From a virus, in IMG/VR virus record IMGVR_UViG_3300048113_000456, positions 1-55,005 of that record: a stretch of DNA of 55,005 nucleotides; one strand, 5' to 3'. Each line of letters starts with the position of its first letter. Within the stretch, counting starts at the first letter, position 1. The position numbers and the translations under genes were made by a program. Below the pieces are notes generated by a model. That model did not search any database. It worked only from the letters and a program-made list of their open reading frames with translations, and was not told the origin of the DNA. This document shows, piece by piece, positions 9,895 through 29,242 of the stretch.

Positions 9895-9928
9895 GAAAAA
9901 AGAAACCCAGCACTACGCTGGGTTTTTT
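9895..9928. terminator. Bidirectional rho-independent terminator between convergent gene blocks
   Basis: An 8-bp perfect stem AACCCAGC (904-911) / GCTGGGTT (917-924) with a 5-nt loop. It is followed by a T-run on the + strand and preceded by an A-run that is the T-run of the - strand. The stop codon of the - strand gene (9913-9915) lies inside the loop, so one hairpin ends both transcripts. Confidence 0.92.
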
Positions 9929-10644
9929 AATGACAGTTCTAAATCATGGAATCCCTTCCGCAATTTCGAAATTCTATGTTTAGACTTGTCTGCTAGGCGG
10001 AGAATATTATCACGTATACTGGGATCAATACCATCACAATATTCTTCTAACCTATCAAAGGCATAAGCATACGTCTCCCGAACAGTAGCTTTTCCTGAGA
10101 TAATATGAGGTACGTAGTTCAGCACTGCGGCATGCTCTGACCCCATTCCATATTTTACCGCTTCCATACAGTTTATGCAACTTGATATTAACGGATCTGT
10201 TCTATGATTCATATATCTTGGCATATATAAAACTTTCTTTTCATTTAATATTCTTGTATCACTAGCAGGAACTTCATACCATTTCTCTGGATTTATAATA
10301 AATACCGACAAGTCTATATGGCCTGGAGTCATATTTACTCCAATCATTTCATAGTTCTTTGCCTGTCTTTTATGATCAGAGTACACCCCGCTACGACTAG
10401 CGCAGATATGGTACTTTCGTATAGTTTCTATAGGCGGTAAGTCATCGTGTCTAATGTTGAGTACAAGTCCCGAAACTACCACTAGGGTAGGCTCAGTAAC
10501 ATTTGCTAGTGCAGTACCTATCTTACTTTTTCCACACTTTACAACACTCCACTTTGCTCGTGGCGTGTTTTTCTGTATAGAATTTATTGTAAGTTGTGTA
10601 AGCTTTGGATTAGTTTCAAGAATTAGAATTTTTAGGCTTGACAT
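9913..10644 (-). CDS. Putative sugar-transferase-like protein (GT-A-like), 243 residues
   Basis: The start was set at the ATG at 10644 because an exact AAGGAG lies 7 bp upstream; an ATG at 10668 is in frame but has no ribosome site. The N-terminus (LKILILETNPKLTQLTINSI) resembles the first beta-alpha unit of GT-A glycosyltransferases, and VVVSGLVLN is followed by a DD pair, but no canonical DXD is certain. The C-terminal third is helical and basic. It overlaps the preceding sugar-transferase-like gene and is the last gene of the Thr-rich fibre operon, so a role in decorating that fibre is plausible but unproven. Confidence 0.5.
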   Translation of the reverse strand: MSSLKILILETNPKLTQLTINSIQKNTPRAKWSVVKCGKSKIGTALANVTEPTLVVVSGLVLNIRHDDLPPIETIRKYHICASRSGVYSDHKRQAKNYEMIGVNMTPGHIDLSVFIINPEKWYEVPASDTRILNEKKVLYMPRYMNHRTDPLISSCINCMEAVKYGMGSEHAAVLNYVPHIISGKATVRETYAYAFDRLEEYCDGIDPSIRDNILRLADKSKHRISKLRKGFHDLELSLKNPA

Positions 10645-11491
10645 GTTCAAACTCCTTAAACTTTTCAAAAAACAAATCTACATACTCTTGAGGATTTTCT
10701 GCGTTAACAGGTATAATGCCAGATGTTTTGCTAGAAAATAATCTTTTTAAGTTGTCTTCTCTATCTTCTCCATCTTTAAAAACTGCTTTATACAAAGAAC
10801 TATAGGTATAGTTGTTGTTTGCATTTCCAAATAAGTATACTTTCTTACCTTTAGCTACAGCAATTAGACCCATTTCTGAATTATCGCAAGCACCTACAAT
10901 TGAAGCATCTTCTAAAAGTTGGTGGCCCGATAGTTTTTTATCTAGTATATTATCTGCCCCAAACTCTTGTTTAAGTTTAGTTACAGCCCAGTTTGCAGTA
11001 ATTGGATGACACTTAAGTTTTGCTCCCTGCTTTACAGCTCGGTGAAGTTTACCGAAGTCACAAGCATCATATAATATATTAGTACCTGGAAGAAAGATTA
11101 CAAAGTCATGTGTCTTTCTATTCTTTCTTAGTCTATACTTATCTACGCTATTATTTTTAATATCATTATAAATTTTTAAACCTTCTTCGGTAATTTCAGA
11201 CTGGCAGGCATCTGCCATTTGTTTGTCGGACCAATACTTACCTGCAATACGTATAAGTATAAACTTACTCATCATATCTGTGTAAGTATATCCATGTATT
11301 CTTTTGTTGTCACCCATGTCATACCATATATCGTATTCGACATTTGTACTATTTGGACCATTTTTTGGTAATAAGTCTTTTAATGCTGCAACATTATCAT
11401 TAAGTTTATTTCTAACGATATTTCCAGATTTAAAGAAATGTGTGGCTGTATCTCCCAGCTCGTCTACATTACTCAGTCTTTCCAAGGCCAT
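10616..11491 (-). CDS. Putative GT-B-like glycosyltransferase (capsule-synthesis-like), 291 residues
   Basis: ATG 11491 is preferred: GAGGAG lies 7 bp upstream, whereas the GTG at 11494 is closer. The central part has features of the GT-B sugar transferases of capsule/Kdo type: a KCHPIT segment, then an SGHQLLEDASIVGAC loop, a Glu (SEMGLIAVAKGKK) and VYLFGN, which matches the pattern of the donor-binding HP...S..E...G motif. It is encoded two genes after the Thr-rich fibre and overlaps both neighbours, so it is co-expressed with the fibre. The enzyme class is inferred from motif order only. Confidence 0.5.
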   Translation of the reverse strand: MALERLSNVDELGDTATHFFKSGNIVRNKLNDNVAALKDLLPKNGPNSTNVEYDIWYDMGDNKRIHGYTYTDMMSKFILIRIAGKYWSDKQMADACQSEITEEGLKIYNDIKNNSVDKYRLRKNRKTHDFVIFLPGTNILYDACDFGKLHRAVKQGAKLKCHPITANWAVTKLKQEFGADNILDKKLSGHQLLEDASIVGACDNSEMGLIAVAKGKKVYLFGNANNNYTYSSLYKAVFKDGEDREDNLKRLFSSKTSGIIPVNAENPQEYVDLFFEKFKEFEHVKPKNSNS

Positions 11492-11648
11492 CACGTAGCT
11501 CCTCTATGTCGTCCCCAAAGCCTTCCAAGCGATCTTCGGTATCTTCGAAGTGCTCCATGATAATGTCTAAAGTAGTCTCTAGACGACGACGCATATTTTT
11601 TACGTCGTCTTGTAGTTGTTTAAATTCTTTTTGTGTTACTCTGTCCAT
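11469..11648 (-). CDS. 59-residue coiled-coil mini-protein
   Basis: A small gene that can easily be missed. ATG 11648 overlaps the end of the giant fibre gene by 13 bp and its TAA overlaps the next gene's start. The product begins MDRVTQKEFKQLQDDVKNM and continues as one charged amphipathic helix with heptad spacing, rich in Asp, Glu, Arg and Leu. GGGATGG upstream serves as a ribosome site. The position between a fibre and its candidate glycosyltransferases suggests a small chaperone or fibre partner; function is unknown. Confidence 0.7.
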   Translation of the reverse strand: MDRVTQKEFKQLQDDVKNMRRRLETTLDIIMEHFEDTEDRLEGFGDDIEELRDGLGKTE

Positions 11649-14600
11649 TCTGAACCATCCCAGTAAATTGTATTATAATCAGATGCCGAAGATACTTCTG
11701 TAAATACGTTGCCTGATCCTGTATATCTCCCATACACAGTGGTGTCTGTATCTCTAGAAGTGCCTGTAGCACGGTTTGTAGATACAACAGTGTCAAATAA
11801 TGTGACAAATGCGGTTGTTGTATCAAATGTTGTCGATGCCGAAGTATCGAAAGTAGTTACATATACACTGCCTGTAGATCTTGAAGTAGCTCGGCTAGTA
11901 CTTCTGCTAGTGTTTCTAGAAGTTTGTGTAGCTAGGGTAGTACCTCTACTAGTATTAAACGTAGTGTTAAATGCAGTCGTTGTGTTAAACGCAGTACTTC
12001 TATTTGTGTTAAACGTAGTAGTTGTATTTCTGCTTGTATTAAAAGCAGTTACATTAGACGTTTCAGTAGCTAAAGAAGTTTCTGATGTTGTTTCAAATGT
12101 TGTGTTAAATGCCGTAGTAGTAGCAAGGGTTGTATTAAACGTAGTAGTTGTATTAAACGCTGTAGTACTACTTCTAGTTGTATTAAACGTAGTAGTTGTG
12201 TTAAATGCTGTTGTACGAGAAGTTTCATTTGTCGTATCAAAAGCTGTTACAAACGTAGTAGTTGTGTTAAACGCAGTAGTTGTGTTAAATGCTGTAGTAG
12301 TTCCACGGTCTGTACCGGTAGTTCTAGTAGTAGCAAAAATACTATAAGTAGCTCTACTTGTGTTAAACGTAGTTACTGTACCAAATGCAGTATAAGTACT
12401 ACGGCTTGTGCCTGTTGCTCTTGAAGTATCAAAGTAGCTAGTGTACGATGTTACTGTAGCAAATGCAGTAGTTGTGTTAAATGCAGTTGTTGTACTACGA
12501 CTTGTACCAGTAGTTTTACTTGTGTTAAACGCAGTAGTTGTGTTAAATGCAGTTGTTGTATTAAACGTGGTAGTTGTGTTATTACCAGTACCCGTTGTAC
12601 GTGTGGTATTGTACGTAGTAGTAAATGCTGTATACGTGCTGAACGCTGTTACAGTATTAAACGCAGTTGAAGTACCACGACTTGTACCAGTACCTTTGCT
12701 AGTATTAAATACCGTGCTTGTATTATACGTAGTGGTTGTATTAAACGCAGTAGTTGTATTATTACCTGTGCCAGTATTTCTATTCGTGTTAAAGTTTGAT
12801 ACATACGCAGTGTACGTAGCAAAAACAGTAGTTGTGCTAAACGCTGTATTAGTGTTACGACTTGTACCCGTACCTCTACTGGTGTTAAATGCAGTAGTTG
12901 TATTATACGCAGTAGTAGTTGTAAAGGTAGTAGTAGTGTTTAGACCCGTACCCGTTGTACGACTAGTATTAAAGTACGAAGTGTATGCAGTATACGTAGC
13001 AAATGCAGTTGTAGTAGCAAACGAAGTTGTAGTGCCACGACTTGTGCCGGTATTTCTATTTGTATTAAATACAGTACTTGTAGCATACGCAGTAGTTGTA
13101 GTAAATGCTGTAGAAGTTGTTATACCTGTTCCAGTAGTTCTACTTGTATTAAAGTTTGATACATAAGCAGTATAAGTACCAAAAGTAGTTACAGTAGAAA
13201 ATGCTGTGGTAGTACCACGATCAGTGCTAGTAGCTTTACTAGTATTAAACGCAGTAGTTGTATTATACGCAGTAGTTGTCGTAAAGGTAGTAGAGGTGTT
13301 TAAACCAGTACCCGTTGTACGAGTTGTATTAAAGTAGCTAGTATATGCAGTATACGTCGCAAATGCAGTTGTAGTAGCAAAGGAAGTTGTAGTACCGCGA
13401 CTTGTACCCGTACCTCTGCTAGTATTATAAGTTGTGCTTGTATTATACGTAGTGATTGTATTAAACGCAGTAGTTGTATTATTACCTGTACCAGTATTTC
13501 TATTCGTGTTAAAGTACGAAGTATACGCAGTATAAGTACCAAAAGTTGTTACTGTAGAGAATGCAGTATTAGTAGCTCTGTTAGTAGCTGTAGTTTTGCT
13601 AGTGTTAAATACTGTAGTTGTATTATACGCAGTAGTTGTCGTAAAGGTAGTAGTAGTATTCTTACCAGTACCTGTTGTACGCGTAGTATTGAAGTAAGAT
13701 GTATACGCAGTATAGGTAGCAAATGCTGTAGTAGTAGCAAAAGATGTTGTAGTTCCACGACTTGTACTTGTGCCTCTGCTAGTATTGAACGAGGTCGTTG
13801 TATTATACGCAGTAGTAGTTCCAAATACCGTAGAAGTATTTCTACTTTCAGCAGTATTTCTGCTAGTATTTGTAGCATATACAGTAGTGAAGGTAGTTGT
13901 AAACGCAGTACTAGTATTAAAAGAAGTAGTTGTGTTACGACCTTCAGCAGTATTTCTAGACGTAGCAGTACCGTATACAGTTACAAACGTAGTATTGAAG
14001 CTAGTAGTTGTTCCGAAGGATGTAGTTGTGTTACGACCTTCAGCAGTGTTTCTAGAGGTAGATGTAACTCTAGAAGTACCTCTAGACGTAGCAGTGGCTT
14101 TACTAGTGTTAAACGTAGTTGCTGTAGTATATGCAGTAGTTGTATTATATACAGTAGTAGTATTTCTGCTTTCCCCTGTAGTTCTGCTCGTGGCAGTAAC
14201 AAATACCGTAGTAAATGCCGTAGTAGTATTACGACTTGTAGAAGTTGCTCTACTTTCACCTGTATTTCTTGAAGTATTACGAGAAGTGTTACGATATTCG
14301 GCAGTGGCTCTACTTGTTGCAAATGTAGTAACAAATGTAGTAGTACGATACTCAGCCGTAGCTCTGCTTGTATTGAATGTAGTTACAAACGTAGTAGTTC
14401 GTGATGTATTGTAATACGTTAAGAATGTAGTAGTACGGTACTCAGCAGTAGCTCTTGAAGTGCCTGTAGCTCTGCTAGTATTTCTAGACGTGTCAAATAC
14501 GGTAGTAGTATTAAAACTAGTAGTTGTATTATGGTCAACAGTACTACGAGAAGTATTACGATACTCAGCAGTGGCTCTAGAAGTACCCGTAAGTCTAGAA

Positions 14601-17600
14601 GTATTAAAACTTACATTCTGTCTACGTCTAATTGTAAAAATATAAGTTTGGCTAGAACTATTATATACATAGCTAGTACCTTTTTGATACTCGTAACCAT
14701 TAGTGATTCGTGTAGTTGAGCCAAATAATGTACCTATGCCTGCTTGGTTCCATATACCTCCACCACCTTGGCTATATACAGAACTAATCTGCTCAACACC
14801 ATAGTAAACATAGTAACTATAATAACTTCTTTGGTAAGCAGTGTATGTTCCAATTACAGAAGTTACGAATGTAGTAGTAGTATTAAAGCTGGTAGTAGTA
14901 TTATGGTCTACAGTAAGGAAAGTAGTAGTACGATACTCAGCAGTAGCTCTCGAAGTTCCTGTAGCTTTAGAAGTTGCGTATACAGTACCAAATGTAGTAG
15001 TCGTGTTAAAACTTGTAGTAGTATTATGATCAACAGTACTACGAGACGTATTTCTTGAAGTATCAAATACTGTGGTACGAGATGTGTTTCTCGATGTATT
15101 AAAAGTTGTTGTAGTATTATGATCTACAGTACTACGAGACGTATTTCTTGACGTATCAAATGTAGTTGTAGTATTATGGTCTACAGTTAAGAATGTAGTC
15201 CCAAAAACAGTAGACGTAGTATAGGACGTAGTAGTATTAAAAGCAGTAGACGTACCTCTGCTAGTTCCTCTACTTGTGTTCGTTCCAAATACTGTGCTTG
15301 TATTATAAGCAGTAATGGTAGTACGACTTGTAGAAGTTGCTCGACTTTCTCCTGTATTACGTGCAGTATTAAAGACTGTAGTAGTATTAAATACAGTAGT
15401 AAAGGATGTAGTAGTTCCAAAAGTAGTAGATGTTGTATACGCTGTATAAGTCGCACGACTTGTACCAGTAGTACGTGACGTTCCGCGAGTAGTGTTTCTG
15501 CTAGTATTTGTTGAGAACGTTGTACTTGTAGTATAAGCAGTGTAAGTAGCTCTGCTTGTTACCGTTGATCTAGACGTTCCGCGAGAAGTGCTTCTGCTAG
15601 TATTAGTTGCGAATACTGTATTTGTTGTATAAGCGGTTAGGGTAGCTCTACTTGTAGCAGTAGTACGACTTTCCGCAGTTGTACGAGTAGTGATAAATGT
15701 AGTAGTTGTATTAAATACTGTAGTAGTTCCACGACTTGTACCAGTTGATCTTGTAGTTGTAGTATTTTTACCTGTAGCAATAGAAGTAGTAAATGTAGTT
15801 ACAGTATTGAATGCTGTGTATGTTCCACGACTTGTAGCAGTACCACGAGACTCTCCAGTTGTACGAGAGGTGTTAAATACTGTAGTAGTACCAAATACTG
15901 TGGTTGTGTTACGGTTAGTACCAGTATTTCTACTTGTAGCCGTGTTTCTACCTGTAGCTATACCTGTAATAAATACAGTATTTGTAATAAATGCAGTGTA
16001 TGTGTTACGGCTTGTACCTGTAGCTCTACTTTCTGAAGTTGTACGAGATGTGTTAAATACTGTAGTAGTATTAAACGCAGTAGTAGTACCGCGACTAGTA
16101 CCCGTTGCTCTTGTAGTTGTGGTATTTTTACCTGTAGCAATAGAAGTTACAAACGTAGTTGTAGTGTTGAAAGCAGTATAAGTATTGCGACTTGTAGCAG
16201 TACCACGAGACTCACCCGTTGTGCGAGTAGTAATAAATGTAGTTGTGGTGTTAAATACTGTTGTAGTTCCACGACTTGTACCAGTATTTCTGCTTGTAGC
16301 AGTATTAAGACCTGTAGCTATACCTGTAATAAATACGGTGCTAGTGTTAAAAGCAGTATAGGTATTTCTGCTGGTACCAGTTGATCTGCTTTCTATGGTA
16401 GTACGTGAAGTATTGAATACTGTGTTTGTGTTAAATGCTGTAGTAGTACCACGGCTTGTACCGGTAGATCTAGTTGTAGTTGTATTTACACCAGTAGCGA
16501 TAGAAGTTACAAACGTAGTTGTAGTATTAAATGCTGTGTATGTGTTACGACTTGTAGCAGTGCCGCGAGACTCGCCCGTTGTACGAGTAGTAATAAATGT
16601 AGTTGTCGTGTTAAATGCAGTAGTTGTGTTTCTGTTTGTACCAGTTGTACGACTGGTTGCAGTGTTTAAGCCTGTAGCTATGCCTGTGATAAATACAGTA
16701 TTTGTGATAAATGCAGTGTATGTGCTACGACTTGTGCCAGTAGATCTACTTTCTGAAGTTGTGCGAGAAGTATTAAATACTGTAGTAGTGTTAAACGCAG
16801 TAGTAGTTCCACGACTTGTACCAGTTGCTCTAGTAGTTGTAGTATTTCTACCAGTACCTAAACTTGTATTAAATGTAGTAACAGTGTTGAAAGCAGTATA
16901 AGTGCTACGAGAAGTAGCTGTGCTCTTAGACGTACCAGTTGTACGAGTAGTGATAAACGTAGTTGTAGTATTAAACGCAGTGGTTGTACCACGGCTTGTA
17001 CCAGTAGTTCTTACCGTAGTAGTGTTTCTGTCTGTACCAATACTTGTTTGGAATGTAGTGCTGGTGTTGAATGCAGTAGTAGTATTTAGACCAGTTCCGG
17101 TAACGTTATTTGTGTTAAATACAGTAGACGTGGTTGTACCAGTATTAAACGTAGTTGTAGTATTAAACGCTGTAGTAGTATTACGACTAGTTCCAGTTAC
17201 TTTAGATGTAGCTGTGGTTCTAGTCGTGTTTCTAGAAGTAATAAATGTGGTGTTGAACGCAGTTGTACGACTAGTCTCTGTAGACTTTGAAGTGTTAAAC
17301 GTTGTCGTTGTGCTACGGCTAGTACCAGTTGCTTTTGAAGTTTCAAATACAGTATTTGTACTACGAGAAGTTCCACGAGACGTATTAAACGTGGTGTTGA
17401 ATGCTGTGATTGTGTTAAACGCAGTTGTACGAGTTGTTTCAAATACTGTACCGCTTTCACGAGTAGTTTCAAAAGTAGTAGTACGAGAAGTTTCTGTAGC
17501 TAAAGTAGTTCCGCGAGAGGTATTAAACGTAGTGTTAAACGCAGTAGTTGTATTAAATGCTGTAACAAATGTAGTAGTAAAAGTTGTAGTAAATGCTGTA

Positions 17601-17890
17601 GTTGTGCTTACAGTAGTATCTACACTTGTTGCAAACGTAGTAGTACGACTAGTAGCAGTACTAGCAGAAGTTCCTAAAGAAGTTTCAAATGTTGTGTTAA
17701 ACGCAGTAGTAGTATTAAAAGCTGTAGATGTTGCTGTAGAAGTAGCTGTTATAGCCTGCCACGCAGTAGAAAAAGTTACGTCACCTTTTGCTAGTACGTA
17801 TCCAACAGAACGTAAAGTGCCTGCGGTGGCCTTTACTATTATTTGCTTTGGCTCTACTAGGGCGGAGCCATTCCACACCTTGATAGTCAT
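11636..17890 (-). CDS. Giant threonine-rich hexapeptide-repeat tail fibre, 2,084 residues
   Basis: The N-terminus VWNGSALVEPKQIIVKA resembles modules used by tail fibres to attach or trimerise. Nearly all the rest consists of six-residue steps, bulky-x-Thr-x-Thr-x (for example FNTTTA, FNTSRT, RSTGTS), broken by four-residue steps. The steps assemble into a 60-residue super-repeat. A non-repeat Tyr/Gly-rich island occupies about residues 1008-1094, the middle of the chain. The C-terminus is again non-repeat (SASDYNTIYWDGSEWTE). Alternating Thr with a bulky residue every six suggests a beta-structured fibre with Thr ladders. It follows a small fibre gene by 1 bp. I do not know a named family for the repeat. 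Confidence 0.85.
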   Translation of the reverse strand: MTIKVWNGSALVEPKQIIVKATAGTLRSVGYVLAKGDVTFSTAWQAITATSTATSTAFNTTTAFNTTFETSLGTSASTATSRTTTFATSVDTTVSTTTAFTTTFTTTFVTAFNTTTAFNTTFNTSRGTTLATETSRTTTFETTRESGTVFETTRTTAFNTITAFNTTFNTSRGTSRSTNTVFETSKATGTSRSTTTTFNTSKSTETSRTTAFNTTFITSRNTTRTTATSKVTGTSRNTTTAFNTTTTFNTGTTTSTVFNTNNVTGTGLNTTTAFNTSTTFQTSIGTDRNTTTVRTTGTSRGTTTAFNTTTTFITTRTTGTSKSTATSRSTYTAFNTVTTFNTSLGTGRNTTTTRATGTSRGTTTAFNTTTVFNTSRTTSESRSTGTSRSTYTAFITNTVFITGIATGLNTATSRTTGTNRNTTTAFNTTTTFITTRTTGESRGTATSRNTYTAFNTTTTFVTSIATGVNTTTTRSTGTSRGTTTAFNTNTVFNTSRTTIESRSTGTSRNTYTAFNTSTVFITGIATGLNTATSRNTGTSRGTTTVFNTTTTFITTRTTGESRGTATSRNTYTAFNTTTTFVTSIATGKNTTTTRATGTSRGTTTAFNTTTVFNTSRTTSESRATGTSRNTYTAFITNTVFITGIATGRNTATSRNTGTNRNTTTVFGTTTVFNTSRTTGESRGTATSRGTYTAFNTVTTFTTSIATGKNTTTTRSTGTSRGTTTVFNTTTTFITTRTTAESRTTATSRATLTAYTTNTVFATNTSRSTSRGTSRSTVTSRATYTAYTTSTTFSTNTSRNTTRGTSRTTGTSRATYTAYTTSTTFGTTTSFTTVFNTTTVFNTARNTGESRATSTSRTTITAYNTSTVFGTNTSRGTSRGTSTAFNTTTSYTTSTVFGTTFLTVDHNTTTTFDTSRNTSRSTVDHNTTTTFNTSRNTSRTTVFDTSRNTSRSTVDHNTTTSFNTTTTFGTVYATSKATGTSRATAEYRTTTFLTVDHNTTTSFNTTTTFVTSVIGTYTAYQRSYYSYYVYYGVEQISSVYSQGGGGIWNQAGIGTLFGSTTRITNGYEYQKGTSYVYNSSSQTYIFTIRRRQNVSFNTSRLTGTSRATAEYRNTSRSTVDHNTTTSFNTTTVFDTSRNTSRATGTSRATAEYRTTTFLTYYNTSRTTTFVTTFNTSRATAEYRTTTFVTTFATSRATAEYRNTSRNTSRNTGESRATSTSRNTTTAFTTVFVTATSRTTGESRNTTTVYNTTTAYTTATTFNTSKATATSRGTSRVTSTSRNTAEGRNTTTSFGTTTSFNTTFVTVYGTATSRNTAEGRNTTTSFNTSTAFTTTFTTVYATNTSRNTAESRNTSTVFGTTTAYNTTTSFNTSRGTSTSRGTTTSFATTTAFATYTAYTSYFNTTRTTGTGKNTTTTFTTTTAYNTTTVFNTSKTTATNRATNTAFSTVTTFGTYTAYTSYFNTNRNTGTGNNTTTAFNTITTYNTSTTYNTSRGTGTSRGTTTSFATTTAFATYTAYTSYFNTTRTTGTGLNTSTTFTTTTAYNTTTAFNTSKATSTDRGTTTAFSTVTTFGTYTAYVSNFNTSRTTGTGITTSTAFTTTTAYATSTVFNTNRNTGTSRGTTTSFATTTAFATYTAYTSYFNTSRTTGTGLNTTTTFTTTTAYNTTTAFNTSRGTGTSRNTNTAFSTTTVFATYTAYVSNFNTNRNTGTGNNTTTAFNTTTTYNTSTVFNTSKGTGTSRGTSTAFNTVTAFSTYTAFTTTYNTTRTTGTGNNTTTTFNTTTAFNTTTAFNTSKTTGTSRSTTTAFNTTTAFATVTSYTSYFDTSRATGTSRSTYTAFGTVTTFNTSRATYSIFATTRTTGTDRGTTTAFNTTTAFNTTTTFVTAFDTTNETSRTTAFNTTTTFNTTRSSTTAFNTTTTFNTTLATTTAFNTTFETTSETSLATETSNVTAFNTSRNTTTTFNTNRSTAFNTTTAFNTTFNTSRGTTLATQTSRNTSRSTSRATSRSTGSVYVTTFDTSASTTFDTTTAFVTLFDTVVSTNRATGTSRDTDTTVYGRYTGSGNVFTEVSSASDYNTIYWDGSEWTE
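12350..13760 (-). repeat. 180-bp tandem super-repeat, C-terminal block of the Thr-rich fibre
   Basis: Segments such as TAYTSYFNTTRTTGTG recur every 60 residues (180 bp), and the DNA phrase GCAGTATACGT recurs at matching spacing. Units are diverged at wobble positions, so this is an old, selected repeat rather than a recent slippage product. Boundaries are approximate. Confidence 0.8.
14607..14866 (-). other. Central non-repeat Tyr/Gly-rich island of the Thr-rich fibre
   Basis: About 87 residues with no hexapeptide pattern: clusters of Tyr (RSYYSYYVYYG), a Gly run (SQGGGGIWNQAGIG) and YQKGTSYVYNSSSQTYIFTIRRR. The repeat resumes immediately on both sides. The island sits at the midpoint of the 2,084-residue chain, so it may be a knob, hinge or receptor-binding tip. 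Confidence 0.75.
15440..17090 (-). repeat. 180-bp tandem super-repeat, N-terminal block of the Thr-rich fibre
   Basis: Across this stretch the sequence lines up with itself at 180 bp: ACGACTTGTACCAG-like phrases recur near 15730, 15910, 16090, 16270, 16450, 16630, 16810 and 16990. Each unit encodes about 60 residues with the spacing of bulky residues 6-4-6-6-6-6-6-4-4-6 or a close variant. The unit length equals that of the C-terminal block although the sequences differ. Boundaries are approximate. Confidence 0.85.
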
Positions 17891-17891
17891 G

Positions 17892-18275
17892 TTATACTAT
17901 ATACCAGACATAGCCAGTTGGCTTCCCAGACCCATCAGTAGGTACAGTGCTTGTAACTTCAGAAATATCATTATTAAAGTCTGATAAATTATCTGGCGTA
18001 CTATAACTGAACACACCCGTAGCGGCATTGTAAGCAAGATCCCCAGTAGCAGAAACTGCATTTCTAGCTCGGGTTGTTGAAAAGTAAGGTTTGCTAGGAT
18101 CTTCGGCGAGATCGGCAGTAGTTCTGTCGTTTATACGTATAACAGTGCCGTCGCTTTTTTTAATATACATAAGACCGTCATATGTATTTATAGCAACTTC
18201 ACCTAAGGCTAGTTGTGATGCATTTGGTGCGGTATCTGGCGAAGCCGAACGCTTTAATTTAATAGTTTGTGCCAT
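17892..18275 (-). CDS. Small tail-fibre protein with Mtd-N-like N-terminus, 127 residues
   Basis: The first 50 residues (AQTIKLKRSASPDTAP, LALGEVAINTYDGLMYIKKSDGTVIRI) follow the pattern found at the N-terminus of many phage fibre and receptor-binding proteins, including the major-tropism-determinant N-domain. The same opening is seen in the protein encoded at 18423-19673. It is the first gene after the promoter at 18335-18363 and ends 1 bp before the giant fibre. It may be the adaptor that joins that fibre to the tail. Confidence 0.7.
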   Translation of the reverse strand: MAQTIKLKRSASPDTAPNASQLALGEVAINTYDGLMYIKKSDGTVIRINDRTTADLAEDPSKPYFSTTRARNAVSATGDLAYNAATGVFSYSTPDNLSDFNNDISEVTSTVPTDGSGKPTGYVWYIV

Positions 18276-19697: not shown

Positions 19698-20048
19698 TTA
19701 AAAGGCTCCTCCGTCCTGAACACCATCCTCTTCGGCAGTGACTAAAGGAAACCAATCAGTAGTTCCTTCAACAGTTCGGTAAACATAAAAAATGTCATTT
19801 GTTGTATCGTACCAAGTATCACCAATTTCTACATTGGAGCCAGAAGGCTGCGCAGGGGTACGAAAATCCTGAGCTGCGATTTGTTCGAGAGCCCCTTGTA
19901 AATTTGTTGCACTAATGTATCCAGTAGGATTTACAACAACAGAAGTTGCCCCTACATCTGCAAGAGCTAAATTAGCTTGTACTTCAGTAGTAGTACTAGA
20001 GACAGTAACTTCTGTAATATACGGTGCAATTTGTATGCTAATAGCCAT
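19698..20048 (-). CDS. Small tail-associated structural protein, 116 residues
   Basis: A beta-rich protein with the phrase GDTWYDTTNDIFYVYRTVEG, a pattern common in phage fibre/appendage proteins, and a GYISATNLQGALEQIA helix that recurs in fibre N-termini. Its ATG overlaps the stop of the preceding gene. No enzyme motif is visible. The shared DGGxF C-terminus with the 416-residue protein suggests they are partners or relatives. Confidence 0.6.
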   Translation of the reverse strand: MAISIQIAPYITEVTVSSTTTEVQANLALADVGATSVVVNPTGYISATNLQGALEQIAAQDFRTPAQPSGSNVEIGDTWYDTTNDIFYVYRTVEGTTDWFPLVTAEEDGVQDGGAF

Positions 20049-20386
20049 TATTTAGTTACTTCCGCTACAACAGTTGCCTGCCCCTCCAAGAGTCTAGTTA
20101 CCATATCATCATTTTCAGTAAAAAGCTCTAGGTCATAAAAATATATTCCTGCCGTAAGTGCAGTTGTGGTAGAGTTTCCGAGTGCCATTTTTACTTGTCC
20201 ATTAGCAGCATCTGTCACAGTACAAGTAAACGTAGCAGCCGCAGACGCGTCAGTTTTCTTTTGACGCATTTGAGCACGAGCTGAGTAGCCCGTTAAGTTT
20301 TTAGCGGATCCGTCCTCAGACAGTGTTAACTGAATCGCAAAATCAGATCCCTGTTCGATCGTTAAGTTATATGTTGCTGCTGGCAT
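20048..20386 (-). CDS. BppU-like N-domain structural protein, 112 residues
   Basis: The sequence follows the layout of the N-terminal domain of phage baseplate/fibre-anchoring proteins of the BppU type: an NLTIEQGSDFAIQLTLSEDG opening strand pair, NLTGYSARAQMRQK, a YFYDLELF strand and a LLEGQATVVAEVT ending. It probably anchors fibres to the tail. It is the first gene after the promoter at 20409-20437. Confidence 0.68.
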   Translation of the reverse strand: MPAATYNLTIEQGSDFAIQLTLSEDGSAKNLTGYSARAQMRQKKTDASAAATFTCTVTDAANGQVKMALGNSTTTALTAGIYFYDLELFTENDDMVTRLLEGQATVVAEVTK

Positions 20387-20466: not shown

Positions 20467-21345
20467 TTAGTTATTTAAAAATTTTCTTAGCCAATTCTCT
20501 TTATCTAAATGGGTCATAAATAGAGGTCTGTATATAATGGGCAATTCCCAAATACTACTACGCCATTTAGGTACAGTGTTAGAAACCTTTTCTTTAAATA
20601 AAGCTACAGAATCTTTTTGGGCAAACTTTTTTTGTATAGAGCCCTCTGTGGTTCTATCTACTATGTACATGTCACTTGACATAGTTAAACAGTAGCATAA
20701 ATTACCTTTTTGATGCTCTGCTAGCAGTTGATAAGAATACAAATGATCTTCTGCTACAGGCAAGTCTTCGCTCATCTTTATTTTAGCTGATTTTTTACTC
20801 TGAAGTATAATAAAATCCGTAGATTTTGGTAAATCTTCTGACCATATATGAGACTCTCCTATGCCTAATTTTTTACTCGGAGTAACTAAACTAATACCCC
20901 ATACTCCGGCTTGTAAATCTTCCGAAACTTGAGCTACGTGTCCTGCATTTACTTTAGTATTTAAAATATCTGTAGGTATAACCCCAAGTACATCAATACA
21001 AGGAAACTGTTTTATGTGGCTATATAAGGACTTTATATAGGAAGGATATAATAAGTCATCTCCATCTATTTGGCTAATAAAGTCACAGTTACTATTTAAA
21101 AATAAGTCTAAACAAGAGTTTTTACCTTTTCCAGGTAATCCATTACTTTCTGTTTGTATAACAGGATACGGCAGCTTTAACTTTAATACTTCTTGAAAAT
21201 AGTTAGAATTAGTAGAATTTACTACTATAATAGGAGTAAGTTCAACCTCGGGTATTTGTTTAATTTCTAATAAATTATTTACAATTCTTACTAACTTTTC
21301 TATACTATTTGTGGTTAGTATAGTAAGCATTATTTTTACCTTCAT
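20467..21345 (-). CDS. Family-2-type glycosyltransferase, 292 residues
   Basis: A GT-A enzyme with a Rossmann-like start (LTILTTNSIEKLVRIVNNLL), a GKGKNS loop (72-77), and the metal/nucleotide-sugar motif DGDD (94-97) 19 residues after the loop lysine. An EDHLYSY segment further on matches the family's catalytic acidic region. It lies 2 bp after the 2OG oxygenase and in the same operon as the collagen-containing tail protein, so it may glycosylate a virion protein. A second protein with the same GKNS-19-DGDD spacing is encoded at 52552-53457. GAGG lies 8 bp before the ATG. Confidence 0.8.
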   Translation of the reverse strand: MKVKIMLTILTTNSIEKLVRIVNNLLEIKQIPEVELTPIIVVNSTNSNYFQEVLKLKLPYPVIQTESNGLPGKGKNSCLDLFLNSNCDFISQIDGDDLLYPSYIKSLYSHIKQFPCIDVLGVIPTDILNTKVNAGHVAQVSEDLQAGVWGISLVTPSKKLGIGESHIWSEDLPKSTDFIILQSKKSAKIKMSEDLPVAEDHLYSYQLLAEHQKGNLCYCLTMSSDMYIVDRTTEGSIQKKFAQKDSVALFKEKVSNTVPKWRSSIWELPIIYRPLFMTHLDKENWLRKFLNN

Positions 21346-21347
21346 AC

Positions 21348-21896
21348 TTAATCCTCTGTATTAAAGAAAAAAGTCTGAAAAAGTCTGGCATTAGTTTTAT
21401 CTGTACCAAAACCTGGAAGTACACTTCTATGGTAGTAATTAGCATCGTATATCACTGCTCTATTATATAAATTTTTAGCTTCTGCTATAATTTCCCAATC
21501 CGATTCTAAAGTTTTATGTTTGTTAAAGTCTACTAGGGCTTCTTTTGAGTGTTTATATATGCCCGTAGGTTTATGTCTGTAAATAGCAGTGCCAGAGTCC
21601 AGAGGAGCATCTGGTGTTAGGTAAACTACACATGCCCAGCTTGTCTGATCGTGATGTATCCAGGTAGTTGCATCTTGTGTAGTATATTGAAACGCAGTGT
21701 TGTACTCTGCAGGCCAATAAGTTATTTTTTTGTTAAGTATTTTTTCAAAAGTTTTTTGAATTTCGTAAAACCATGCACCTCCACAAGCTTTAGTGCGTTT
21801 TCCAGGGTAGTTCCCTGTTATATTAAACTCCCAGGATAGTGCTAGTTTTCTAACACTATCCGGATCTTGATAAAAATTATCTTGTATTATAAACAT
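21348..21896 (-). CDS. 2OG-Fe(II) oxygenase (DUF6445-like / prolyl-hydroxylase-like)
   Basis: 182 residues with the double-stranded beta-helix triad: H81-x-D83 in TWIHHDQTSW, H156 in YYHRSVLPGFG, and R171 for 2-oxoglutarate. The strand VVYLTPDAPLDSGTAIYRH is characteristic of the DUF6445 group. These enzymes hydroxylate side chains; prolyl hydroxylases belong to the same fold. The gene starts 5 bp after the collagen-containing giant tail protein, which makes that protein an obvious candidate substrate. That link is inference; a sugar or other small substrate remains possible. Confidence 0.75.
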   Translation of the reverse strand: MFIIQDNFYQDPDSVRKLALSWEFNITGNYPGKRTKACGGAWFYEIQKTFEKILNKKITYWPAEYNTAFQYTTQDATTWIHHDQTSWACVVYLTPDAPLDSGTAIYRHKPTGIYKHSKEALVDFNKHKTLESDWEIIAEAKNLYNRAVIYDANYYHRSVLPGFGTDKTNARLFQTFFFNTED

Positions 21897-21901
21897 ATAT
21901 G

Positions 21902-24900
21902 TTATCCTAGGTTGCCGATTTTTACTCTGATATTACCAGATCCATCGTATATTAAAATTCTATTGTTAGTTCCGTCTATCCCTAGCACGTTTTCGTTCGT
22001 ACCTCCCGGCGTATAATTAGACGCTCTAGAATACTCTGTAAAAGTTGTGCCAGATCCAGAATATTCCCAAGCTCTATCTGAAGGTATATGCCAGTATACG
22101 TCTCCTGCTAAAGCAGGGCTTTTTACATTTTCTATTGCTACTTTTTTATTAGCGTCTGTAGCTATAGTAGAACCTGTATCAAATGCTATAGTGTTTCCTG
22201 CCGCGCCTTGTGCTCCAATCTCCCCTTGAGGACCTGTTTCACCTTGAGCACCTTGCTGTCCTTGAGGGCCTTGAGCACCTTGGGGCCCTGTTTGACCTTG
22301 GGCTCCTTGTTGTCCTTGTGGACCTTGATCACCTTCAGCACCTTGAGGCCCTGTTTCACCTTGTGGACCATCATCACCCTGAGCACCTTGGTCACCTTGA
22401 GCACCTTGAGGTCCTGTTTCACCTTGAGGACCATCATCCCCTTGAGGACCTTGATCACCTTCTGCACCTTGAGGTCCTGTTTCACCTTGAGGACCATCAT
22501 CCCCTTGAGGACCTTGATCACCTTCTGCACCTTGAGGACCAGTAATACCTTGAGCACCTTGTTCGCCTTGAGGACCTTGATCACCTTCTGCACCTTGAGG
22601 ACCAGTAATACCTTGAGCACCTTGTTCGCCTTGAGGACCTTGGTCACCTTCTGCACCTTGAGGACCAGTAATACCTTGAGCACCTTGTTCGCCTTGAGGA
22701 CCTTGGTCACCCTCAGCACCTTGAGGACCAGTAATACCTTGAGCACCTTGTTCGCCTTGAGGACCTTGGTCACCTTCAGCACCTTGAGGGCCAGTAATAC
22801 CTTGAGCACCTTGTTCGCCTTGAGGACCTTGGTCACCCTCAGCACCTTGAGGACCTGTTTCGCCTTGAGGACCATCATCACCTTGTGGACCTTGATCACC
22901 CTCAGCGCCTTGAGGTCCTGTAATACCCTGTGCACCTTGCTCACCTTGAGCACCTTGGTCACCTGTAGCACCTTGAGGGCCTGTAATACCTTGTGGACCT
23001 TGCTCACCTTGTGGTCCTTGCTCACCTTGGTTACCTTGCAAGCCTTGAGGACCTTGAGCTCCTTGCTCTCCTATAGGACCTTGAGCGCCTACTACTAGGA
23101 AAGCAGAATATGCATGAAAACTAGAAGCATCTATAGCAGAGGAGGAGGCTTCCTGAGCGTAAGTTTGGTAATTTATATTAGTAACACCTCCCGGCACTCC
23201 GGTAGCTATTCCGTATATAGAGTAAGTTCCACCTACAGTTGAAAAACTTGCATTTACTGTTTGTTTTCCTACGGGTGTTAGTTTATTATAGTTTATTATT
23301 TCATACCATAAAGTATCTACTAAGACATCTTCTACTAACTCTTGGGTCCCAGGCTCTTTATTAGATACGGAATCATCTCCTCCCCATACCCAGTGTTTCC
23401 CTGAGTGTAAAACAAGATCTCCATTATCATAGCTAGTAGAAGAAGACCAGGCACTTTGATTAGCAGGGGCACCTCCATAATCTTCATCAGAAGGATCTAA
23501 ATAACCTCTAGGAGCATTTGAGTAGTAAGGAAAGACTGTTTCTCCAGTATCTCCTACAGCTCCCTGCAGTCCTGCACCTCCTTGTGGGCCAGTAATACCT
23601 TGAGGACCTGTCTCACCTTGAGCACCTTGAGGGCCTTCACCACCTTGTGGACCAGTAATACCTTGAGGACCTTGGTCACCTGTAGCACCTTGAGGACCTG
23701 TCTCACCTTGAGCACCATCAGCACCTTGAGGACCTTGGTCACCTGTAGCACCTTGAGGACCTGTCTCACCTTGAGCACCATCAGCACCTTGTGGACCTTG
23801 ATCACCTGTTGCACCTTGAGGACCTGTCTCACCTTGAGGACCATCATCACCTTGAGGACCTTGATCACCTATATTACCTTGAGGACCTGTTTCACCTTGA
23901 GGGCCGTCTTCACCTTGAGGACCTTGATCACCCTCAGCACCTTGAGGACCTGTTTCACCTTGAGGACCGTCTTCACCTTGAGGACCTTGATCACCCTCAG
24001 CACCTTGAGGACCTGTCTCACCTTGAGGACCGTCTTCACCTTGAGGGCCTTGATCGCCGATGTTACCTTGAGGACCTGTCTCACCTTGAGGACCGTCTTC
24101 ACCTTGAGGGCCTTGATCACCGATGTTACCTTGAGGACCTGTTTCACCTTGAGGACCGTCTTCACCTTGTGGACCTTGATCGCCTATGTTACCCTGTGGA
24201 CCTTCTTCACCTTGAGGACCGTCTTCACCTTGAGGACCTTGGTCACCTATATTGCCTTGAGGGCCTTGTTCTCCTTGTGGACCTTCTTGACCTTGAGGCC
24301 CTTGATCACCTATATTACCTTGAGGACCTGTTTCACCTTGAGGACCCTCTTCACCTTGTGGACCTTGTTCACCTTGAGCACCTTCTTCACCTTGAGGACC
24401 TTGATCACCTTCAATGCCTTGAGGGCCTTGAGCACCACGAATAGACTTAGTAAAGGTTTGAACTCTAGTGTAGGTTGTTTCACCTCCTACGCCATCTACA
24501 ACAACTATCGTAAAGGTAATACTTCCGGTATTTGCACTAAGAGCTGTAATACTACCTAGTGTGTAAGAATTTGAGTCTGTAGTAGGAGTGCTATCTTCTG
24601 TAACATTAGTAGAAGATACATTAGTAACTCTAAACGACGGAGTTTGGTATTCTTCACTATCATCATAAGGTATATAAGTATTTCCTATAATTGCTTTGAT
24701 AGTAGTACTTGTATTGGTAAAATCTAATGTGTCGTTTTCAAGAACTGGTACACTACAGTTTTCATTACTAAGTACTATATTTACGCCGTCTACTACTCCG
24801 TCAGCTACGCCCTCTACGCCTGGGTATCCGCTTAAAGGATGATACGCAGAGTATAGTCTAGAAACTTTATTTCCGTTTTGAGTATCAATCTGCGTAACTA

Positions 24901-27900
24901 CATGTCTTATCCAGTAGTATCTAGTCTCTGTTTCTGTAGAAAGTATTTTATCCAGGAATATATTGCCAGAGGTAGTACCTATTTTTTCCGCATTAGCAAA
25001 ACTATCGTCTGTGGATCTCCAGATTTCTGTATCAAAAGCAGCTTCATTAAAGTCTGAAGAATTAGTCCAAGTAAGTTCTATACCACCTTTTCTTGAGTTT
25101 AAATTTTGTGCTAAATCTGAAGGAGAAAGTACACGTACAATTGGACTTGCTTGTGGAGCTTGATACATTGGAGCTACAGCTGAATTTAAACGCTCTAATA
25201 TATAAGCATCATCATTATGCTCTACGGCTACAACCTGTACAAGATTATTAGAGTCTGCTTTCAGTGTTTGTATTCTAAATAATTTCTTTTCCCAGTTAAA
25301 TCTAGGATAAGTTATGGCAATTATTTCTCCAGAAAGAAGTAAGTAAGACTTAGGAGACAACGTTAACGATATAGATAAACCCGCTCTTGATTCGTCAAGA
25401 AGTTGTTTAATATTTAGACGAGCATTATAGTAGTTAGAGATACCACCTGCTTTAAAGTTTCCTTGACGTTTAATACCTTTATCTTCTTCCAAATAAACTG
25501 AATTAAAGAAAGATAAACTTCTAGTATTGAATGAGTTAGAAGGGTCTACTATAGATGCTGTAATAGCATTATACGTTTTATTTATACCCTTATCTTCTAA
25601 CTTTATATCACCTATAATATCATCTTCTGTGATAATTTCAATAGCAGGATCAAAGTTTTCAATAGCTTTAGCTTTTGTTTTTACTTTTAAATAGTATTTT
25701 CCTTGCTGGTATCGTAAAATACCATTAAATTGGCTCAGTAAATTATTTACGTTTTCAAAAACAGATGTAGAGGTATCAATAACAATATTTGTCTGGTGTC
25801 TAGTAACGTATCTTTGGTCTTGGCTGTCCCAACCTAAGTACTTCCAGTAGAGAACAGAATCAGAGTCGTACAAAGAGTATCCAGTAACAACAGCAGTTTC
25901 ATTGTTGTCTAGAGTAGTGATTTGTTTAACGATAGGATTTTGATCTCCACCGTTCATAACATCTGTACTAGTGTTTACTGTTATATCGTTAGAAGTTCCA
26001 GTTAATGTCAGAGTTCCAAAAGCACCTGTAGGCTTAACAATAGTTCCTTTAGAGGTTACAATTGAAGCGGTTAAAGTGCTGTCTTCATAATGGTAAACTA
26101 AGTCGTTTACTTCATACTCTTTCCAGTCAAACCATTTTTTACCTAATTTTCCTATAACGTCTGTAAATACTACTTGTTTGTATGTAGTACCTTTGTATGT
26201 TTTTAACTCTACAGACTCTACAGTACCTTTAAACATTAACTGGCCTGTAGCAGGGTATCTATATTCTTGACCTACTTGTACAGTAGAATATTGACCACAT
26301 AAAATTGTTACGTCAGAACGCTGTTCACAAGCTAATGCTGACTCGTAAAAACTAGGTAAATCAATTAAATCTAAAGACAAGCCTTTACCGTATCGCTCAC
26401 TAGTTAAGTAATCTAACAATTGTAGCGCAGGGTTTATTGTAACCCTATAGTCTCCGAAGTTATTTGTAGAAACTATAGAAGTAGAGTGCCCATAGCTATA
26501 TGAGTAACCAGTAAGATCTAAAGTACCTTCTACTATTAAAATGTTATTAGTGTCAATAAAAGTCTGAAAGCTTGAGTCCTCCGGAGAAAGTACGGACTTA
26601 GTATATGTAGTGCTGCCCTCTTTTGTGAATTTTACATTTAAACTACTTATTACAGATAGTGCAGATGTGTCTGAGCTGTCTCTTGTATAGGCGCTTACAT
26701 TTTTAAACTCTAAATCTACAGAATCTATTGTTACACTTTGAGTATCAGAGTATAAGTCTACAAGCTCTCCTGAATTTTGTAAAGTATAAGTAGGATTTGA
26801 AAAGAATTGATCAAGATTTGAGTTTTTCTGCACTACTCTTGCTTTGAAGGTAGTAGTATTTATAGAGTAAAGAGTTACTCTAAATGTTGCATCCGTTGTG
26901 CCCTCTGTAAGAGAAAGTTGCAGAGAAAAAGCCTGGTCATTAGTATTTTTTAAGGCTTTTATTAAGTTTTTGTCAAAAGTAGATAAACCTGATAAGTCAA
27001 TATCATAGTATGCTGATACTAAATCGCTAGGAGTTCTTTTTAATTCTGGGTCGTAAGAAAATACTTGCTTAGTAGATACTCTTGTTAGACTAACATCAGT
27101 TAAGTCTGAGGGATTAAGTCTAGAGCCTACGTCATACTCATCGCTTGTAGCTGCGGTTGTACCAGAGAAAGACTCTGATACCATGACCCAAGAATCGCTT
27201 CCAGAGGTCATAGTTATGCTTTTAGCCTCCCCAGCGTCTATTATATCTTGTACAGATTGAGTAGCACATTTTACTTTAAAACGTACGTCTAAACTGCCGT
27301 CAGCACTGTACAAAGTAAACTTATCTACAATTTCGGCTGAAGAAGTTTGTCCAGTATTTAAAGTTATGGTTACTGTTTGTCCTAAGTAAAAGTTATCTGC
27401 TTCTGCTGGATCAGTAGTACCTCTATAAGTACCATCATAGTTTTGACAATTTACATATTTGCCTTTTACTACATAAGAATACTCTCCTGCTTTTCCACTT
27501 TCTGAGGTAACAGTATCTTTTGTTACAACGTATGCAGTGTCAAGTAACTGGTGGTTAGCTGTCCAATATTCGCTAGGGTCTTTATCGTAGTAGTCATTTT
27601 GTACTAAAAATTTACCTTGAGAGGCGTTTTTAACTAAGGTAGGGTCAGCTCTTTGGTTATCGAGCCCTGCGTGGAAAGTAAAATGTAAATCATTATTTGA
27701 TTTCCAAGAAAATGTTTTACCGTGTGTAATACCCGTATTACTTACAAGTCTATGTTGAAACGCATCACTTAATTCATAAGATGCCTGATACAGTCTATTT
27801 GTAGTTGGAGTCTGTATTCTTTCATAGTTTTCGTCGCCTAGTAAGAAAGCTTCAGTTTGTATGGCAGAAGATTGATCTAAGGTATAAAAGTCTGCTCCGC

Positions 27901-29242
27901 CTAGTACATCGCCTTTGTCCATTCTTCCAATACAGGCTACTCCTGCTTCAGCGTCACTTCCTACATAGCGACTGTCATAGTCTGCTTTATTAGAGCATAT
28001 TAAACCTTTGTTATTATCAGTGTATACGTCATAGACTCCACCAATAGGACCTTCACACAATACATTAGCTGTATATAGCTCTGTTTTACCTTCTGCAATA
28101 TTATCAGATGAGTTACTATCACGGGTAATAATTACATCGGCAAATACAGGTACAGCATCTATTTTTTGAACACCATAAACTACAGGTATGAATTTAGCTT
28201 GTAAATTAAAGCTAACGTCAAGCTCTCGCTCTACTTCATAAGTTTCTATGGAGGTTTTTTGCATCCCAAAAAGACCTGCCAAACCACCACGTTTACGTAT
28301 TTTTGGTCGTGTAGCTGTATCTGTGTATTGTGCGCTTACATTTAAAGCCGAGTCTGCGTGCTCAAAACCTTTGTCATCTTTATACGCTGGAGAAATTAAG
28401 GCTCCTTCTGAGGAAAACCCTGACGCGTCTAGTGCTCTGTGGTACTCATCTGAAGTTAAACGTCCTTGAACGCCTACAAAGTCTGCCCAGTGGCTAGTAA
28501 GATTCCATGTGATTGCTGCCTCTCCAGATGCCTTATCTGAAATAGAAGACTTACTAATAATTCCCTTAAAGAAAAAGATAGGGTCTGTATGATACCACTC
28601 TCCTGTAGTAGGATTTGAATAGATTTTATAAATGTCAACAGAACGGTTTACATAGTTCGAGTAGCTAAGAGATGCAGTGTTAGGTATAAGTCCAGAGACT
28701 TCAGGGTTAGCATATTCTATATCAAAAGCAGTACTTAAAACTGTAGGAAAGCCTGCGTCATCTAGTGCCGTATACTCTACTTCAGTTCCAGAACTTTTTA
28801 ATTTATCAATTCGTACATTGTGTACATTAGAAGTAGATCTAGAAGATAGAACTATAGTGTCGCCTGGATAAAACCCAGACTTAAAAAGGTCAATAGAAGT
28901 GGTAAAAGTACCTGTAGATCCTTTTGCTGTTGAAGTATTGTTTGTTATGGTAGATACTGCGTAGGCACCTAACTTAGCAGCAGAAAGAACCAAGTTTGAG
29001 TTACTTGCTTTTGCTTGAGTAGCTTCTTCAATTGCACCTACTTTTAAAAGTGACCCAGGTCTATACGTCTGTCCATCCCATTCTACATCATGAGGTGCGT
29101 CAGTTAAGTAAACAAAATCTAAGGCAGAATCTGACTCTTTTTTGTTCGAAGGTTTTTCAAATTTTACTAGGTGAAAAGTATTAAAAGGATTGTTAGCTAT
29201 AAGCGCATCTTTTAAACTTTGCGGAAGATTTCTGATTGCCAT
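21902..29242 (-). CDS. Giant tail-tip (gpJ-like) protein with two collagen-like blocks, 2,446 residues
   Basis: Domains in order: a tail-hub-like N-terminus (about 1-320, [39 protein letters not shown]); a long gpJ/central tail-tip part (about 340-1400, with [14 protein letters not shown] and [15 protein letters not shown]); a fibronectin-like domain (about 1370-1490, [23 protein letters not shown]); a collagen block of about 100 Gly-X-Y triplets; a 150-residue globular insert; a second collagen block of equal size; and a C-terminal beta domain (about 2350-2446). It should form the tail tip that contacts the host. Promoter 29297-29325 lies directly upstream. The length and the fusion of hub, tip and collagen fibre are unusual. 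Confidence 0.88.
22195..23090 (-). repeat. Collagen-like Gly-X-Y repeat block 2 (distal)
   Basis: About 99 uninterrupted Gly-X-Y triplets, mostly [15 protein letters not shown] and GAE. A unit [19 protein letters not shown] is repeated with few changes, which also makes the DNA internally repetitive (TTGAGGACC-type phrases). Pro is in the X position. Boundaries are approximate. Confidence 0.92.
23540..24441 (-). repeat. Collagen-like Gly-X-Y repeat block 1 (proximal)
   Basis: About 100 Gly-X-Y triplets. The proximal part is richer in NIG and EDG triplets ([16 protein letters not shown]) and the distal part in ATG/ADG triplets. It is equal in length to the second block and separated from it by a 150-residue non-collagen domain that contains [18 protein letters not shown]. 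Confidence 0.92.

What the first reader, a model, noticed from the sequence alone, without database searches (positions are those of the whole stretch)
11636..17890. Threonine-rich fibre built from hexapeptide steps in a 60-residue super-repeat
Bulky residues (F, R, Y, L, K) recur every six residues, sometimes four, with Thr at alternating positions between them. The steps group into 60-residue (180-bp) units in both halves, with different unit sequences but equal length. I know no named family with this architecture. Thr ladders of this kind suggest a beta-solenoid or triple-stranded beta fibre.
Basis: seen in the sequence. Interest (0 to 1): 0.9.

Follow-up and report, generated by a model that had tools for sequence, protein, structure and literature searches.

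The report
Self-complementary hairpin fibre protein in phages
A giant threonine-rich phage fibre protein whose second half is, read backwards, a chemical complement of its first half (every aromatic residue faces an arginine or lysine), so that the chain appears to fold back on itself like a hairpin of nucleic acid; in relatives the two complementary strands are made by two neighbouring genes.

Summary
The repeat is real: a 2,084-aa minus-strand ORF, 38% Thr, with lag-60 identity 0.46 against 0.20 shuffled. The 60-residue unit is not the main point. The protein is a mirror. The N-arm (58-900) matches the C-arm (1204-2046) read backwards. Bulky residues face bulky residues and Thr faces Thr. 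Where both partners are aromatic or cationic, the pair is always aromatic with Arg/Lys (128 pairs, 0 aromatic-aromatic, 0 cation-cation). Five bulge motifs (VDH, AEYR) continue the pairing 5/5 to a central tip near residues 1003-1097. Across 46 representative proteins, pairing found blind to residue type gives 2,277 mixed pairs, against 39 and 12 like pairs (586 and 559 expected). In 18 other loci two adjacent genes are antiparallel complements of each other (1,093 mixed, 11 and 5 like). A cultured phage, Stenotrophomonas DLP6, has the same hairpin on a baseplate protein. Best reading: a tail-fibre shaft made of an extended antiparallel beta-hairpin held by an aromatic/cation ladder, probably trimeric, analogous to but not homologous with the T4 gp37 needle. 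No Pfam, PHROG or PDB family matches. AlphaFold failed on the arms, so the three-dimensional form is inferred.

The parts
11636..17890 (-). Thr-rich fibre gene, 2,084 aa
   Evidence: composition and lags
17720..17890 (-). N-terminal cap (residues 1-57), MTIKVWNGSA..EP..I.VK..AGTLR.V.YV, shared with relatives
15191..17719 (-). N-arm (residues 58-900), pairs antiparallel with the C-arm
15611..17080 (-). 60/120-residue repeat array of the N-arm (residues 271-760)
14885..15190 (-). Outer N-arm with bulge motifs TVDHN at residues 902, 921, 952, 993 and AEYR at 984
14600..14884 (-). Tip domain (residues about 1003-1097), Tyr-rich, ending in TIRRR; distantly alignable with tips of relatives (..Y.YQRG....YRIRRR)
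14282..14599 (-). Outer C-arm with AEYR at residues 1108, 1149, 1179, 1197 and TVDHN at 1117, the mirror partners of the N-arm bulges
11753..14281 (-). C-arm (residues 1204-2046), complement of the N-arm read backwards
12392..13861 (-). 60/120-residue repeat array of the C-arm (residues 1344-1833), opposite the N-arm array
11639..11752 (-). C-terminal cap (residues 2047-2084), ..SSASDYNTIYWDGSEWTE, shared with relatives
10616..11494 (-). orf292, conserved directly downstream of the fibre in relatives (142 of 143 loci where both are present); possible GT-B glycosyltransferase, weak evidence
9913..10668 (-). orf251, second linked gene (55 loci), no family
17892..18275 (-). orf127, directly upstream of the fibre; tail-fibre N-terminal domain (phrog_17885); also directly upstream in 17 relatives
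20048..20386 (-). orf112, L-shaped tail fibre assembly (phrog_3304), LtfC-like; places the fibre in a tail-fibre cluster

Best explanation
The gene encodes a tail-fibre shaft that folds out and back. The N-terminal arm (about 945 residues) runs from the virion end to a small tip domain near residues 1003-1097, and the C-terminal arm returns antiparallel, in exact register, so that both caps lie at the base. On one face of the two-stranded beta ribbon a rung occurs every 4 or 6 residues, in which an aromatic residue of one arm sits beside Arg or Lys of the other; Thr faces Thr between rungs. The spacing and the type of the rungs act as a code: only the right partner in the right register fits. 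In relatives the two arms are encoded by two adjacent genes and pair in trans. SHOWN: antiparallel mirror complementarity, in cis and in trans, in many proteins. INFERRED: that paired residues are beta-sheet neighbours; that three hairpins assemble into a six-stranded needle (some two-gene partners end in a Peptidase_S74 tailspike chaperone, and the T4 gp37 tip has such a needle); that the tip binds the host; a length near 300 nm if fully extended.
For: (1) Mirror of bulky residues: r = 0.67 in the window protein and 0.87-0.89 in three relatives, at i+j = n+18 or n+20; shuffling the order of the 4/6 steps gives at most 0.18-0.37. (2) Complementarity: in four proteins aromatic faces cation; F-F 3 against 72 expected and no R-R. 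In the window 128 mixed, 0 aromatic-aromatic, 0 cation-cation, of which 55 lie outside the repeat arrays and 117 have distinct sequence contexts. (3) 46 representatives, pairing located blind to residue type: 2,277 mixed, 39 aromatic-aromatic (586 expected), 12 cation-cation (559 expected); 40 of 46 had a reported stem, and the largest shuffled score was 49.5. (4) Bulge motifs VDH and AEYR pair 5/5 in mirror order in the window. (5) Arms co-vary in length from about 100 to 900 residues; the centre is a tight turn (DGKS, VGGKPSE) or a tip domain. (6) Prediction made and met: L174, whose two ORFs show no clear self-pairing, pairs between its neighbour genes antiparallel end to end (120 mixed, 2 and 3 like; parallel control 7 mixed, 32 and 15 like). 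Then 18 two-gene loci gave 1,093 mixed, 11 and 5 like (summed); L217 pairs 1,011 residues without a gap. (7) Found in a cultured phage: DLP6 gp265 residues 707-970 with 983-1246, 35 mixed, 2 and 0 like. (8) Not a DNA palindrome: reverse-complement identity at mirror positions 0.348 against 0.344 background. (9) Context: T5-like tail module, L-shaped-fibre assembly gene; relatives on T4-type baseplate wedge proteins; S74 chaperone above cut-off in L184.
Against: No structure. AlphaFold2 gave pLDDT 35 for a short relative; the tip model reached 59 overall and 70-79 in its core with no PDB match. The number of strands and which face points inward are not determined. Six of 46 representatives gave no reported stem: the two L174 ORFs and L175 belong to two-gene loci, and L170, L050 and L012 are short (314-380 aa) and scored below the threshold. 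Virion localisation is inferred from gene context only.
Confidence: 0.86

Rival explanations
1. Antiparallel homodimer (or higher even oligomer) of fully extended chains instead of a hairpin: residue i of one molecule pairs with its mirror residue of a second molecule running the other way, giving a bipolar rod.
For: Mirror complementarity alone cannot tell intra- from intermolecular pairing; two-gene loci suggest that pairing can be in trans.
Against: The mirror centre coincides with tight turns of about 4-12 residues in short members (L066, L065, L051) or with a compact tip domain. Caps would sit at both ends of a rod, which does not suit a fibre attached by one end. DLP6 and L087 carry the hairpin at one end of a baseplate protein.
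Confidence: 0.08
2. Beta-solenoid or triple beta-spiral of parallel coils, with the mirror reflecting a symmetric decoration along the fibre.
For: Thr ladders and hexapeptide steps resemble solenoid repeats on inspection.
Against: No periodic turn residues (one Pro in 2,084), strict alternation; parallel pairing at shuffle level for this protein; aromatic-cation exclusivity at mirror positions and in trans is unexplained by decoration.
Confidence: 0.04
3. Low-complexity, disordered Thr-rich linker or mucin-like stalk whose pattern is a by-product of DNA repeat slippage.
For: Tandem repeats at DNA level; AlphaFold low confidence in the arms.
Against: Slippage makes direct repeats, not protein mirror complements; DNA reverse-complement identity at mirror positions is background. 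Between repeat units at lag 60, 164 of 430 codons differ while encoding the same residue.
Confidence: 0.02

Closest known systems
T4 gp37 C-terminal needle (long tail fibre tip)
   Same: Trimeric phage fibre tip described as a six-stranded antiparallel beta needle with the receptor-binding head at the end (PMC9659904 and PMC7291167), so each chain must run out and back.
   Different: No sequence match of the window protein or L066 to any solved structure at a significant E-value. The gp37 needle is a short piece of a 1,026-aa protein (receptor-binding elements are its last 215 residues); here arms reach about 945 residues and carry an aromatic/cation code.
Peptidase_S74 (intramolecular chaperone) tailspikes and fibres
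   Same: The first gene of several two-gene pairs ends in an S74 domain (L184 above the Pfam cut-off, L182, L240 and L174 just below).
   Different: The window protein has no S74 match; the shaft is unlike known S74 fibres.
T5 / DT57C L-shaped tail fibre
   Same: The window has a T5-like tail module, and the gene lies near an L-shaped-fibre assembly homologue.
   Different: No sequence relation of the fibre itself to any phage in the INPHARED collection by tblastn.
T4-type gp7 baseplate wedge (DLP6 gp265, L087)
   Same: Carries the same kind of Thr-rich complementary hairpin at its C-terminal end.
   Different: In the window the hairpin is a free-standing fibre gene with its own caps.

Membership tests
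T4 gp37 needle | Out-and-back antiparallel chain with tip at the far end | tested here: met
   Mirror pairing around a central tip; this is sequence evidence, not a structure
T4 gp37 needle | Sequence homology to gp37 or Stf C-terminal domains | tested here: not met
   No Pfam, PHROG or PDB match for the window protein
T4 gp37 needle | Trimer, six strands | not testable with these tools
   No multimer prediction; S74 chaperone on some two-gene relatives is indirect support
T4 gp37 needle | HxH iron-binding motifs along the core | tested here: not met
   5 His in 2,084 residues, all in the five TVDHN bulge motifs; the HxH feature itself is from general knowledge
Beta-solenoid / parallel beta-helix | Parallel rungs with periodic turns | tested here: not met
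   Parallel pairing at shuffle level; continuous alternation, no turn residues
Phage tail fibre (functional class) | Located in tail-fibre cluster with assembly genes | tested here: met
Phage tail fibre (functional class) | Present on the virion tail | not testable with these tools
   No proteomics or EM

The most novel reading that the evidence does not exclude
Phages have evolved sequence-coded complementarity between protein strands: an aromatic/cation rung code with variable 4/6 spacing that sets partner and register over up to about 1,000 residues, in one chain (hairpin) or between two chains from adjacent genes, so that partner strands can be predicted from sequence much as nucleic-acid stems are.
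Probability: 0.75. Interest if true: 0.97.

Novelty: categorically new. Interest (0 to 1): 0.93.

Why it matters
I know of no natural protein that carries a readable strand-pairing code over hundreds of residues. The code lets one predict strand partners, register, turns and bulges from sequence alone, where AlphaFold fails. It covers many uncultured phages plus one cultured soil phage, explains an otherwise unannotated Thr-rich protein class, and makes testable how very long beta fibres keep register. It also suggests a natural template for programmable protein fibres.

Tried and rejected
AlphaFold2 of a short complete relative (L066, 9 sequences): pLDDT 35, pTM 0.18, arms not folded. Tip domain: pLDDT 59, Foldseek against PDB best E = 0.54, no use. 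tblastn of the window protein, its relatives' N-cap, L066, L029 and L217 against 50,697 phage records: nothing; BLAST's low-complexity filter may hide Thr-rich relatives; L034 and L087 led to DLP6. Two scans of 84,980 prokaryote genomes: no relative, so no prophage and no host assignment. DNA palindrome as cause of the mirror: rejected. Parallel pairing: rejected for this protein. Stretches of phages Melnitz-3, KVP40, Cr30 and Quill_5.2 that were fetched hold no Thr-rich hairpin. Literature searches (threonine-rich fibres; the peptide motifs as text; fold-back fibres) found no description; most subscription papers are not held. The fold of orf292: only weak hints to KpsC / Capsule_synth.

Full report
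What is there. The window is a 55,005-base virus record. Tail genes on the minus strand resemble those of T5-like siphophages: tape measure (31.9-37% identity in the listed Aeromonas, Vibrio, Escherichia and Pectobacterium phages), distal tail protein, terminase 48% identical to T5, and an L-shaped-fibre assembly homologue. In this cluster lies the 2,084-aa Thr-rich ORF at 11636-17890. It has no match in Pfam, PHROGs or the PDB.

Periodicity. The chain is an almost unbroken two-residue alternation. One face carries Thr and the bulky residues F, R, Y, K; the other carries T, S, A, N, G.

Mirror. In the first full-length relatives (L011, L013, L014) the N- and C-halves were of equal length around an irregular centre. 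Correlating bulky positions i and S-i gave a single sharp optimum at S = n+20 in all three (r 0.87-0.89, next best 0.38-0.46), and at n+18 in the window protein (r 0.67, next best 0.48) (0-based indices). Windows in L014 reach r = 1.0. Shuffling the order of the 4/6 steps, which keeps composition and step lengths, gives at most 0.18-0.37.

Complementarity. At mirrored positions F or Y faces R or K, and T faces T. F-F occurred 3 times where 72 were expected. In the window: 128 mixed pairs over residues 58-900 opposite 1204-2046, none like-like; 55 of them lie outside the repeat arrays, and 117 distinct sequence contexts all agree. In the remaining central stretch, bulge motifs TVDHN and AEYR pair with each other 5 of 5 in mirror order; as VDH is three residues and AEYR four, the register shifts there, which explains the mixed parity seen.

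Family. Four scans of IMG/VR with different queries gave 97 unique complete Thr-rich ORFs, 45 representatives plus the window protein. Stems located without reference to residue type, then typed: 2,277 aromatic-cation, 39 aromatic-aromatic (expected 586), 12 cation-cation (expected 559). Representatives share less than 30% of 10-mers, but are still related, so pairs are not fully independent; the effect is too large for that to matter. Some long members (L060, L034, L073) contain a second, shorter hairpin after the first. Aromatics may also face Q, L, I, N, V or H; cations almost never face anything but aromatics (101 cells against 2,277).

Trans pairing. L174 has two adjacent Thr-rich genes without clear self-pairing. 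The hypothesis predicted that they would pair with each other; they do, end to end, residues 2-1186 of the first with 1186-11 of the second: 120 mixed, 2 and 3 like, against 7 mixed, 32 and 15 like for parallel pairing. A fifth scan brought more such loci; in 18 non-duplicate ones the sum is 1,093 mixed, 11 and 5 like (my sum). L217 pairs 1,011 residues without a gap (143 mixed, 4 and 0 like). L238 and L239 may be one-gene members split by a frameshift or stop, and L040 (not counted) looks so. Several first genes end in a Peptidase_S74 chaperone domain (L184 above cut-off, three just below), the chaperone domain of trimeric tailspikes (general knowledge; see also the abstract of PMC8326128).

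Cultured example. Searching with L034 and L087 led to Stenotrophomonas phage DLP6 (KU682439.2), gp265, annotated as baseplate wedge subunit: after a gp7-like part, residues 707-970 pair with 983-1246 around the turn TNPGLSQYSVVF (35 mixed, 2 and 0 like; numbering from the stop-to-stop frame, two residues ahead of the annotated start). A text search of the isolation paper (PMC5349666) found no mention of threonine. A relative of orf292 occurs in DLP6 as well.

Mechanism. The simplest reading is an extended antiparallel beta-hairpin with caps at the base and the tip at the end; in the two-gene form the two strands are separate chains. A two-stranded ribbon alone is unlikely to be stable, so I infer a trimer of pairs, six strands with N- and C-arms alternating, in which each aromatic lies between two cations. 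This resembles the T4 gp37 needle (PMC9659904, PMC7291167) in architecture but not in sequence. If fully extended at 0.33 nm per residue the shaft would be near 300 nm. Strand number, inward face and length are not shown.

Linked gene. orf292, directly downstream in the window, is also directly downstream of the Thr-rich gene in 142 of 143 loci holding both (the 143rd is L174, where it follows the second gene); six loci with enough downstream sequence lack it: L073, L077, L087, L034, L060 and L175. Profile searches give only weak hints (KpsC in the PDB, E = 1.6; Capsule_synth in 3 of 20 members, best E = 0.023), in line with a GT-B glycosyltransferase. Glycosylation of the fibre is therefore a hypothesis only.

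Limits. No structure prediction of the arms succeeded. Scarcity in cultured phages rests on a search with a low-complexity filter. The literature held is incomplete. The host is unknown.

Noticed in passing
window 21902-29242 (-): 2,446-aa tail hub-like protein with two long collagen-like GPQG.. (G-X-Y) arrays; a second fibre-forming repeat in the same phage.
   Followed up: no
window 20467-21345 and 21348-21896 (-): A weak family-2 glycosyltransferase match and a DUF6445 protein inside the tail-fibre cluster.
   Followed up: partly
window 10616-11494 and 9913-10668 (-): orf292 and orf251, two genes linked to the Thr-rich fibre in IMG/VR relatives; orf292 shows weak KpsC / Capsule_synth similarity.
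   Followed up: partly
L060, L034, L073: Long members with a second short hairpin after the main one (turn VSDFTTVS in L060 and L034).
   Followed up: partly
L087 and L077: L087 joins a T4-type gp7 baseplate wedge domain to a long Thr-rich hairpin; L077 holds a Thr-rich hairpin with turn IDAETKEEVT.
   Followed up: partly
L040 9998-14381: Thr-rich gene split into two overlapping frames whose halves pair (50 mixed, 1 and 0 like): a frameshift, real or from assembly.
   Followed up: no
window 16902-17984 and other + strand ORFs inside 11636-17890: Long antisense shadow ORFs (V/L-rich) produced by the Thr-rich repeats; unlikely to be genes.
   Followed up: no
L177 (DLP6) gp265 residues about 590-700: A non-repeat domain inserted between the gp7-like part and the Thr-rich hairpin, resembling carbohydrate-binding modules by eye.
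   Followed up: no
pooled pairs: In some subfamilies glutamine faces phenylalanine (189 cells), as if Q can take the place of the cation.
   Followed up: no
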